Shown here in pieces: positions 34,567 to 36,384 of a DNA stretch of 36,384 bases. The translations under genes and the position numbers were made by a program. The number at the start of each line of letters is the position of its first letter. Positions within the stretch are counted from its first letter, which is position 1. Source of the DNA: Pseudomonadota bacterium (GTDB lineage Bacteria > Pseudomonadota > Gammaproteobacteria > Burkholderiales > Thiobacillaceae); the NCBI GenBank assembly GCA_021802945.1, contig JAJZRE010000024.1, positions 1 to 36,384 of the forward strand, given 5' to 3'. A model generated the notes under the pieces. That model was not told the origin of the DNA. It saw nothing but the letters and a program-made list of their open reading frames with translations, and did not search any database.

Positions 34567-35307
34567 ATGTACACCGCAACCGGCAAGAGCGAAAAGAGCG
34601 AGAAGAACGACCTGCTGACGCAGTACATGCCGATGGTGAAGCGCCTCGCGCATCACATGATGGGACGGCTGCCGCCCAGCGTGGAGGAGGACGACCTGGT
34701 GCAGGCCGGCATGATCGGCCTCCTGGATGCCGTCAGCCGATTCGATGAGGCGCAGAGTGCCCAATTCGAGGCCTATGCCATCCAGCGCATCCGCGGCTCG
34801 ATGATCGACGAACTGCGCCAGTCCGACTGGATGCCGAGGAGCGCGCGGCAGTCGATGCGCAAGATCGAGCAGGCCATCGGCGCGCTGCAGCACAGGCTGG
34901 GACGACAACCCAGCGAAGCCGAAATCGCCGAATCCATGAAAATGCCACTGGCCGAATACCAGGCCATGCTGGGCGATGCGCGCGGCCATCAGCTGCTGTA
35001 TTTCGAGGACTTCGGCGAGTCGGACGAGGACGATTCGTTCCTCGACAAGCAGTCGGCGAACGAAGCCAGCATGCCCTTGCCCCAACTGCTCGATGCGAAT
35101 CTGCGGGCCTGCATCATCGCCGGCATCGAGAACCTGCCCGAGCGGGAGCAACTGCTGATGTCGCTCTACTACGAGCAGGAACTCAACCTGCGCGAAATCA
35201 GCGAAGTGTTCGGCGTCAGCGAATCGCGCATTTGCCAGCTGCACGGGCAGGCCATCGCGCGGCTGCGCGCCAAACTGAAGGAAGATGCATGGATCGTGGC
35301 AGCCTGA
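34567..35307 (+). CDS. fliA: Flagellar sigma factor FliA (sigma-28)
   Basis: Class III flagellar sigma factor, 246 residues. Region 2 spans QYMPMVKRLAHHMMGRLPPS and EDDLVQAGMIGLLDAVSRFD, and QFEAYAIQRIRGSMIDELRQ. Region 3 holds GRQPSEAEIAESM, and region 4 is NLPEREQLLMSLYYEQELNL followed by the helix-turn-helix EISEVFGVSESRICQLHGQA. FlgM binding is expected from family. It starts 3 bp after flhG, and its last 19 bases overlap motC. Its target motif is present before motA in the same cluster. Confidence 0.97.
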   Translation: MYTATGKSEKSEKNDLLTQYMPMVKRLAHHMMGRLPPSVEEDDLVQAGMIGLLDAVSRFDEAQSAQFEAYAIQRIRGSMIDELRQSDWMPRSARQSMRKIEQAIGALQHRLGRQPSEAEIAESMKMPLAEYQAMLGDARGHQLLYFEDFGESDEDDSFLDKQSANEASMPLPQLLDANLRACIIAGIENLPEREQLLMSLYYEQELNLREISEVFGVSESRICQLHGQAIARLRAKLKEDAWIVAA

Positions 35308-36026
35308 TCGGACTCGGGCTGGCGGCGGTCGCCATCCTCGGCGGCCAGGCGATGGAAGGCGGGCACATCGGCCTGTTCATGCAGCCGGCCGCTTTCGTCA
35401 TCGTGATGGTCGGCACCCTGGCTGCGGTGCTGCTGCATTATCCGCTGCCGGTTTTCCTGCAGGGCGTGCGCATGGCGAAATGGGTGTTTCGTCCGCCCGA
35501 GCCGGAAGCCGGCATCATTATTCGCCGCGTCGTCCAGTGGTCGCACACCGCGCGCCAGGATGGCCTGCTGGCCCTGGAAAGACACCTCGACATGACGCAC
35601 GACCCCTTCCAGCGAACCGGTCTGCAACTGCTCATCGATGGCGCCGACGTGACCAAGCTGCGCGACACCCTCGACGTACAGATCATCAGCTTCGAAACGG
35701 CGGAGCGTCAGGCCGCACGCGTGTGGGAGGCGGCTGGCGGCTATGCGCCCACGCTCGGCATCCTGGGCGCGGTGATGGGCCTGATTCACGTGATGGAAAA
35801 CCTGGCCGAGCCCGGCAAGCTGGGCACCGGCATCGCGGTCGCCTTTGTCGCCACCATTTATGGCGTGGGCCTCGCCAATCTGGTGTTCCTGCCGATTGCC
35901 AACAAGATCAAGTTCACCATCGCGCGCCGGGTGAGCGAGCGCGAGATCGTCTGCGACGGTCTCGCAGGCATTGCGCAGGGCGACAACCCGCGCATCATCG
36001 AGGCGCGCCTGAAGGGTTACCTATGA
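35289..36026 (+). CDS. motC: Second stator protein MotC (MotA homologue)
   Basis: MotA-family stator subunit of the MotCD type, 245 residues. The start at 35289 (MDRGSLIGLGLAAVAILGGQ) matches MotC and PomA-like N-termini; a longer frame from 35232 reads through fliA. Four membrane segments, with the first two at about 5-22 and 30-50. The third-helix region is GGYAPTLGILGAVMGLIHVM, and KLGTGIAVAFVATIYGVG marks the fourth. The C-terminus is NPRIIEARLKGYL. The gene overlaps fliA by 19 bp, so motCD are co-translated with the sigma factor. Its TGA stop falls inside the left repeat of the element at 36023-36317, so the native C-terminus may have been different. Confidence 0.93.
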   Translation: MDRGSLIGLGLAAVAILGGQAMEGGHIGLFMQPAAFVIVMVGTLAAVLLHYPLPVFLQGVRMAKWVFRPPEPEAGIIIRRVVQWSHTARQDGLLALERHLDMTHDPFQRTGLQLLIDGADVTKLRDTLDVQIISFETAERQAARVWEAAGGYAPTLGILGAVMGLIHVMENLAEPGKLGTGIAVAFVATIYGVGLANLVFLPIANKIKFTIARRVSEREIVCDGLAGIAQGDNPRIIEARLKGYL

Positions 36027-36317
36027 TCCCAGGAACCGCGGTTGACCGCTCATAAGCTCATGGCATACCGCATGAAAACCTATTGCCGTGCCTTCGACCA
36101 CGCTCACCAGAAAGGCGAGTCCGCTCCGCGCCCGCTGGCACGCCTAGTCACGCGCCTGCCTTTGTCATTCGTCGTTGCAGGCCCGAGCCTGCCGCCTCCT
36201 CATTTCGCCCTAAAGGACTCCGATCCACTATGGGCCGAAGCCCATGTGGAGTCGTATGCGGCAGCCACCTGCCCAGACGCACCTTCGGGTGCGTCCAACC
36301 ACGGTTCCTAGGATCAT
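36023..36317. mobile_element. 295-bp structured inverted-repeat element between motC and motD
   Basis: Inverted repeats at 36023-36043 and 36297-36317 match at 19 of 21 positions (outer ends ATGATCC and GGATCAT). Inside are three strong hairpins in a row: GCAGGC-CCGA-GCCTGC (36177-36192), ATGGGC-CGAA-GCCCAT (36230-36245), which CCAC/GTGG extends across one bulged base, and GACGCACC-TTCG-GGTGCGTC (36276-36295), a C(UUCG)G tetraloop. No transposase is encoded. A frame of 89 codons crosses it but is not convincing. An AT is found just outside each repeat if the first two bases are left out, which may be a short target duplication. The element could be a MITE. Confidence 0.7.
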
Positions 36318-36384
36318 GCGCAGGCGCCGCCGCATCGCCTATGACCACGACAACCACGATCGCTGGCTGATCTCGTACGCTGAC
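36316..36384 (+). CDS. motD: Second stator protein MotD, N-terminal fragment (cut by window end)
   Basis: The last 69 bases give MRRRRRIAYDHDNHDRWLIS and then YAD, which is the start of a MotB-type protein of the MotD subgroup. A basic N-terminus is followed by DRWLISYAD, where the aspartate is the proton carrier at the head of the membrane helix. The frame runs off the end of the window. The ATG overlaps the right-hand repeat of the preceding element. AGGA lies only two bases before it, so the ribosome site is poor. In other bacteria motC and motD are adjacent; here they are 289 bp apart. Confidence 0.85.
   Translation, partial: MRRRRRIAYDHDNHDRWLISYAD

What the first reader, a model, noticed from the sequence alone, without database searches (positions are those of the whole stretch)
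36023..36317. Structured 295-bp element inserted exactly at the motC/motD junction
The sequence shows 21-bp inverted repeats (19 matches) bounding DNA with three consecutive stable hairpins with CCGA, CGAA and UUCG loops. It lies where motC and motD normally abut. Removing it and one AT would join CCT to ATGCGC, making motD's start overlap motC. It may reduce or retune MotD relative to MotC, since transcription and translation have to pass three hairpins and the motD ribosome site is poor. The tetraloop-rich interior is unusual for a simple MITE, and it could act as an RNA.
Basis: partly seen in the sequence, partly recalled or inferred. Interest (0 to 1): 0.72.

Follow-up and report, generated by a model that had tools for sequence, protein, structure and literature searches.

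The report
Mobile element sitting between motility genes
The insert between two flagellar motor genes is a copy of a small "jumping" DNA repeat of these sulfur bacteria; its copies sit mostly in one direction at the joints between co-oriented genes and carry a start signal and an uninterrupted reading frame, as if to let ribosomes pass on to the next gene.

Summary
The 295 bp are a miniature transposon (MITE): a 285-bp core (36028-36312) between 5-bp target duplications (ATGAT / ATCAT), inserted in the overlapping stop/start (TGATG) that joins motC and motD in relatives. Matches to it occur in 35 of 36 genomes of the genus, Thiobacillus, and its ends in other proteobacteria. One relative carries an IS1634-type transposase. 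The CGAA hairpin belongs to a nested 51-bp repeat; the stems covary.

What stands out is the placing. At independent Thiobacillus sites with co-directional neighbours, 62 copies point with the genes and 7 against. A start codon is the most conserved triplet of a hypervariable stretch, and translation from it crosses the element at 59 of 59 forward sites that have it (70 of 71 copies), against 19 of 26 others. The amino acids are not conserved (dN/dS about 1). In the window, motC's stop, a 10-codon leader, an 83-codon frame and motD follow at -4, +4 and +4 nt. I read it as a MITE tolerated in operons because it is translated: a ribosome relay. No expression data were available.

The parts
35289..36026 (+). 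motC (flagellar motor protein); stop codon TGA at 36024-36026
   Evidence: Pfam MotA_ExbB 1.2e-28 and NCBIfam PRK09109.1 6.4e-111
36023..36027 (.). left 5-bp target duplication ATGAT; overlaps the motC stop codon
   Evidence: 58 of 133 family copies have an exact 5-bp duplication, mostly (A/T)TNA(A/T)
36028..36312 (+). MITE core, 285 bp = usual family length of 234 bp + nested 51 bp
36028..36044 (+). left terminal inverted repeat
   Evidence: repeat-end pattern found in at least 120 stretches of genome contigs
36296..36312 (-). right terminal inverted repeat; carries the TAG stop of the internal frame
36023..36055 (+). 10-codon leader frame whose ATG overlaps motC's stop (ATGA, -4) and which ends TAA
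   Evidence: also in L013 and L017; fused to the main frame in L025
36060..36311 (+). stop-free internal frame: ATG at 36060, family start codon ATG at 36072, TAG at 36309-36311, 4 nt before motD
36177..36192 (+). hairpin with CCGA loop, covarying across the family
36207..36257 (+). nested 51-bp palindromic module (hairpin with CGAA loop at 36232-36243)
   Evidence: 12 of 110 aligned copies carry it (11 at 51 bp, 1 at 52 bp); occurs alone elsewhere
36276..36295 (+). hairpin with TTCG loop
36313..36317 (.). right target duplication, ATCAT (presumed changed from ATGAT)
   Evidence: empty sites
36316..36384 (+). motD, 5' end only (the window ends here)

Best explanation
A non-autonomous transposon (MITE) with IS1634-type ends entered the overlapping motC-stop/motD-start TGATG in an ancestor. 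Its 5-bp duplication left both the stop codon and the start codon intact, and several species still carry it. Shown: the element belongs to a dispersed family, has duplicated its target, and lies forward in the operon. Inferred: it persists in operons because ribosomes translate it. The ribosome that ends motC restarts on the overlapping ATG, ends a 10-codon leader, restarts 4 nt on, crosses the element in a stop-free frame, ends at the TAG in the right inverted repeat and restarts 4 nt later on motD. This keeps the C-rich RNA covered, so Rho should not stop transcription, and keeps motD translationally coupled. The peptide itself does not matter. The covarying hairpins are a property of the element (DNA or RNA level not resolved) and would be unfolded by passing ribosomes.
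For: Family: 3 MITE copies in the own genome, the other 7 of 11 matching places being the 51-bp module alone; 35 of 36 genus genomes with matches; 58 of 133 copies with an exact 5-bp duplication. IS1634: L314 has both ends, TTTAA duplications and a transposase piece matching NF033559 at 2.6e-54. Filled, empty and scar-like sites at motC/motD. Orientation at independent Thiobacillus sites: 62 forward, 7 reverse, p 4e-12; at tight stop/start joints 34 against 3. Outside Thiobacillus: 14 against 3, and 4 against 2 in 40 further loci; together 18 against 5. Start codon: the most conserved of 69 triplets, 16 changes against a median of 59; ATG or GTG in 102 of 110 copies. Stop-free passage: forward 59 of 59 sites, others 19 of 26, p 1.3e-4; frameshifted forward copies 10 of 11 against 6.9 expected, p 0.018. 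In 22 of 39 forward sites with an ATG within 20 nt, that ATG lies 1 or 4 nt after the position of the element's TAG, inside or just outside the -4 to +3 nt best for coupling (PMC12548453, passages). In G011 leader and main frame are fused into one 78-codon frame from a GTG overlapping motC's stop to 4 nt before motD.
Against: No RNA, ribosome or protein data. Loss of stop codons by substitution in this frame is not significant (9 seen, 13.3 expected), and two of the five other frames show stronger depletion, so much of the openness is composition. Frameshifts are common in the first half. One forward copy of 71 stops inside (L144); it dropped out of the per-site count because its site was represented by another copy called convergent. 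Two forward copies from the last 40 loci, L330 and the Hydrogenophilales copy L365, stop inside by a rougher start rule. Reverse copies in operons do not have significantly more open antisense frames (7 of 11 against 45 of 99, p 0.34). In G055 the bias is only 9 to 4 (p 0.27). A first, cruder gene caller gave 37 forward to 26 reverse; it called motC on the wrong strand, and Pfam backed the second caller on 13 of 15 disputed flanks and the first on 0 of 15. The p-values ignore relatedness between copies. In G011 the frame is also open upstream into motC, so its GTG is only a candidate start.
Confidence: 0.6

Rival explanations
1. Plain MITE relic: a neutral insertion at a joint where it does no harm. 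The open frame is only GC-rich composition and the orientation bias comes from something else, for example reverse copies containing a harmful signal.
For: dN/dS about 1 and an even spread over codon positions; no significant loss of nonsense changes; matches to the transposase piece in only 2 of 56 genus genomes; clean or scarred losses at this locus.
Against: Does not explain why the start codon is the most conserved triplet, why forward sites are open 59 of 59 times while convergent ones are open 8 of 14, or the 62 to 7 orientation.
Confidence: 0.27
2. Structured RNA element acting in the mRNA (stability, processing or attenuation between motC and motD); the frame is secondary.
For: Stable fold and covariation, 131 cells changed on both sides against 42.6 in shuffles; the orientation bias fits an RNA role.
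Against: The central stems (helices 3 and 4) show no G-U pair in 9 pairs over 61 sequences, which fits DNA pairing or arm-to-arm correction at least as well as RNA. Copies also lie in convergent and divergent sites (15 and 8). No Rfam match in the element.
Confidence: 0.1
3. The frame encodes a functional small protein carried by the element.
For: A reading frame of about 75 codons in many copies and a conserved start codon.
Against: Missense changes at the neutral rate, 942 seen against 912 expected; median dN/dS 1.09; frameshifted forward copies stay open in another frame; no Pfam or NCBIfam match for the window's peptide.
Confidence: 0.03

Closest known systems
Chunjie MITE of Geobacter uraniireducens (Chen et al. 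2008; seen only as cited in the review PMC10969869, passages; the original is not held)
   Same: 235-bp MITE with direct repeats, one copy inside a phosphate-uptake operon; the cited title says without disturbing the operon structure, the review's text says it disrupts it
   Different: The passages seen mention no orientation bias and no translated frame; its sequence was not compared here
Enterobacterial RU elements with open reading frames (Delihas 2007, PMC2759123, passages)
   Same: Small mobile sequences that carry open reading frames
   Different: In the passages seen the frames are fused to or extend genes. The words operon, orientation and intercistronic do not occur in that paper; here the frame lies between two intact genes
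Other IS-derived MITEs such as MITEAba12 (PMC6382973, passages)
   Same: Inverted repeats, target duplication, parent insertion sequence identified
   Different: MITEAba12 has stop codons in all six frames and no preferred orientation, as reported there
Rickettsia palindromic elements (recalled; listed in the review PMC10969869)
   Same: The nested 51-bp palindrome is a multiple of three and some solo copies lie in frame inside genes (8 of 34)
   Different: Most of the solo copies examined here are not clearly in genes

Membership tests
MITE | short, terminal inverted repeats, no transposase gene | tested here: met
   core 285 bp, repeats of 17 bp plus the duplication; no family match for its frame
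MITE | target-site duplication | tested here: met
   58 of 133 copies exact, 87 of 133 with 4 or 5 of 5 letters; the window copy has 4 of 5
MITE | multiple copies at unrelated sites, with empty sites in relatives | tested here: met
   114 independent sites; empty motC/motD joints
IS1634-derived | ends shared with an element carrying an IS1634 transposase and the same duplication length | tested here: met
   one example only, L314, degenerate transposase: the larger open piece matches, the smaller has no match
IS1634-derived | transposition shown with that transposase | not testable with these tools
   needs an experiment
IS1380-derived (considered first) | shared terminal repeats | tested here: not met
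   the resembling stretch in five G054 loci has the same letters on both sides, so it is not a terminus
Rfam structured RNA | match to a curated family | tested here: not met
   one hit at E 1 in 35000-36384, outside the element and far below its gathering score
Conserved small-protein gene | purifying selection on amino acids | tested here: not met
Translated intercistronic relay | ribosomes cross the element and reinitiate on the next gene | not testable with these tools
   only indirect sequence evidence

The most novel reading that the evidence does not exclude
A widespread proteobacterial transposon family is adapted to live inside operons. Its palindromic 5-bp target preference fits overlapping stop/start codons, so the duplication keeps both. 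Its body supplies a leader, a start codon, a stop-free passage of arbitrary peptide and a terminal stop next to the following gene: a mobile ribosome relay that avoids polarity.
Probability: 0.42. Interest if true: 0.78.

Novelty: new variant of a known kind. Interest (0 to 1): 0.6.

Why it matters
Insertions in operons are normally polar. A transposon that stays harmless by being translated, selected for being open rather than for what it encodes, would be a distinct survival strategy for mobile DNA. It would also explain a class of unconserved 'hypothetical protein' genes between operon genes and offer natural tests of translational coupling and of Rho-dependent polarity.

Tried and rejected
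IS1380 as the mobiliser: rejected, since the resembling repeat in G054 is not a terminus. Conserved small protein: rejected. A first gene caller gave no clear bias and was replaced after it called motC on the wrong strand; the replacement was checked with Pfam on 15 of 65 disputed flanks, using the longest frame on each called strand. Prediction that reverse copies in operons keep an open antisense frame: not supported. RNAalifold on 110 copies found only two short stems, so stems were named and counted instead; helix 3 of that count was chosen because its columns covaried in the same alignment, so it is not an independent test. The 51-bp module as a purely intragenic element: not supported, 8 of 34. 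Literature: searches listed no paper whose title or shown abstract describes this family or a translated, oriented intercistronic MITE; the library lacks most subscription journals, and I looked only at listings and at passages of four papers.

Full report
Observation. The sequence at 36023-36317 is as described. motC stops at 36024-36026 and motD starts at 36316. The ends form a 22-bp inverted repeat with 20 matches. The fold is more stable than all 100 shuffles, z -4.5, and the CCGA, CGAA and TTCG hairpins are in it. The default repeat finder missed the inverted repeat.

What it is. The own genome gave 11 matching places: 4 belong to 3 MITE copies (this one, one on C73 and one on C23) and 7 are the 51-bp module alone (the MITE copies again). 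Of 60 genomes including the own one, 38 had matches, 35 of 36 in the same genus (matches to the module alone count there too). The genus is Thiobacillus: contigs of G002 and G010 have the lengths of named T. denitrificans RG and Thiobacillus sp. 65-29 contigs. Aligned copies show a common unit of about 234 bp from CC to GG. I collected 133 distinct copies at 114 independent sites; they come from the loci and the regions, not from every hit listed. Of the 133, 58 have an exact 5-bp target duplication, mostly (A/T)TNA(A/T), and 87 have at least 4 of 5 letters. The repeat end occurs in at least 120 stretches of named genomes, among them Rhodoferax, Polaromonas, Sterolibacterium, Denitromonas and Thiodiazotropha (the scan stopped at its limit and printed 80; one search lists all 120). 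One, in a Sterolibacterium MAG (L314), is 1693 bp long with both ends and TTTAA on both sides, and its larger open piece is an IS1634 transposase (2.6e-54; the smaller piece has no match). Only 2 of 56 genus genomes match that larger piece, so the family seems to have largely lost its engine there. IS1380, my first idea, failed.

The motC/motD site. The search covered 37 genomes, 23 of them of the genus; 19 of the 23 showed motC. Junctions: filled in 4 (G000, G005, G022, and G011 with a diverged copy), a scar-like TAGGATCATG in 2 (G002, G021), and 13 without the element, 5 of which read plainly NTGATGCG. The motC tree of 18 of these (G008 left out) puts scar G021 beside filled G022 and empty G016 beside filled G005. 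The filled copies and the scars share GGATC(C)ATG on the right. One old insertion with repeated loss is the simplest reading, but separate insertions are not excluded.

Nested module. The CGAA hairpin is part of a 51-bp repeat (36207-36257) carried by 12 of 110 aligned copies (11 at 51 bp, 1 at 52) and found alone elsewhere. Of 34 classifiable solo copies, 8 lie in frame inside genes, 11 have flanking coding on one strand but no stop-free common frame, and 15 are elsewhere (9 copies in MITEs and 1 too short were set aside).

Placing. With a codon-usage gene caller, the independent Thiobacillus sites are 62 forward between co-directional genes, 7 reverse, 15 convergent, 8 divergent and 2 unassigned; G055, from another bacterial family, has 9, 4, 5 and 3 (one shared site is counted in both). 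At tight stop/start joints the count is 34 to 3. A cruder caller had given 37 forward and 26 reverse of 133 copies, but it misread motC. I drew 15 of 65 flanks on which the callers disagreed: the second caller's strand matched Pfam in 13 of 15, the first caller's in 0 of 15. In the first 80 loci, 10 Thiobacillus or close loci left out, 27 copies gave 14 forward, 3 reverse, 2 convergent, 7 divergent and 1 unassigned. The other 40 loci were examined only while checking this report: with 7 Thiobacillus or Hydrogenophilales loci left out and the twice-called L363 counted once, 4 are forward, 2 reverse, 4 convergent and 2 unassigned. Together that is 18 forward and 5 reverse outside the genus (two-sided binomial p about 0.011, my arithmetic).

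The frame. The element's forward strand has a frame that ends at TAG in the right repeat in most Thiobacillus copies. It is open through the interior in 56 of 62 forward sites, 7 of 7 reverse, 12 of 15 convergent and 7 of 8 divergent. Its amino acids are not conserved: median dN/dS 1.09 over 5050 pairs, and 942 missense changes against 912 expected. Nonsense changes are 9 against 13.3 expected, not significant; two of the five other frames show stronger depletion and three do not. So composition explains much of the openness. Two facts go further. First, the start codon at aligned columns 44-46 is the most conserved of 69 triplets in the hypervariable part (16 changes, median 59), with ATG in 94 and GTG in 8 of 110 copies; I set the bounds of that part after seeing the profile. 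Second, translation from it reaches the right end at 59 of 59 forward sites, but at 8 of 14 convergent, 4 of 5 reverse and 7 of 7 divergent ones (forward against the rest, Fisher p 1.3e-4; sites without a start codon there, with N, or unassigned are left out). Counted by copy it is 70 of 71 forward; the exception, L144, lost its place in the site count to another copy at its site. Of 11 frameshifted forward copies 10 are open in their new frame, against 6.9 expected (p 0.018). Outside the genus, with a rougher rule for the start, 12 of 12 and 3 of 4 forward copies with a start are open; the excluded Hydrogenophilales copy L365, forward, is not. The converse test, open antisense frames in reverse copies, was negative: 7 of 11 against 45 of 99. 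These p-values treat copies as independent beyond shared sites, which they are not fully.

The window copy. motC's stop overlaps an ATG (ATGA) with AAGGG upstream, presumably the old motD ribosome site. That ATG opens a 10-codon leader ending TAA; 4 nt later comes ATG, then an 83-codon frame ending TAG; 4 nt later motD's ATG. G005 and G022 have a leader of the same length; in G005 the next in-frame ATG is 17 nt on, in G022 it is 4 nt on and motD follows the TAG by 5 nt. In G011 leader and frame are fused: 78 codons from GTG (overlapping motC's stop) to TAG, 4 nt before motD, though that frame is also open upstream. In 39 forward sites with an ATG within 20 nt, that ATG follows the TAG position by 1 nt (11 sites) or 4 nt (11 sites). 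A review of translational coupling gives -4 to +3 nt as best and Rho loading on untranslated RNA as the cause of polarity (PMC12548453, passages). The element's RNA is C-rich, 106 C and 73 G in 285.

Structure. With named stems on 61 copies, 91.0% of cells pair (shuffles 85.1%) and 131 cells change on both sides (shuffles 42.6, 0 of 500 as high); slid stems pair 31-40%. Shuffles do not remove relatedness, and the three pairs of helix 3 were picked because they covary. The central stems have no G-U pair, so the pairing may matter as DNA.

Mechanism and judgement. Shown: a MITE, its family, its target, its orientation bias, start-codon conservation and open passage. Inferred: ribosomes use it, and this is why it persists in operons. 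I put this at 0.6, with a plain relic as the main rival. MITEs in operons (Chunjie) and small mobile elements with reading frames (RU) are known, so this is a new variant of a known kind, not a new kind.

Noticed in passing
L049 (G007), about 1898-1954, in motD: A solo copy of the 51-bp module lies in frame, antisense, about 200 nt into motD of a species that lacks the MITE at the motC/motD joint.
   Followed up: partly
L017, L140, L139, L138, L156 and others: A second nested module of 57 bp (114 bp in two copies) sits in the MITE, a multiple of three, at column 136 in 23 of 110 aligned copies and at column 91 in L156; 138-bp inserts sit in three copies.
   Followed up: partly
A1 columns 145/181, 148/178, 151/175: Covariation outside the central hairpin recurs every third base with unpaired bases between; unexplained.
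   Followed up: no
L012 about 1490-1782 and the site of L167 (G055): Copies in two bacterial families clustered as the same site by their flanks; in L012 it lies between PTS EIIA-type and PEP-utiliser genes.
   Followed up: partly
L374 2497-2676: On a Polaromonas plasmid an annotated 'hypothetical protein' is antisense to a copy of the element, possibly a mis-annotation caused by this family.
   Followed up: no
L251, L253, L289, L303, L311, L315, L322, L327: Shorter stretches of 119-145 bp between the same ends in gamma- and betaproteobacterial genomes, perhaps a separate subfamily.
   Followed up: no
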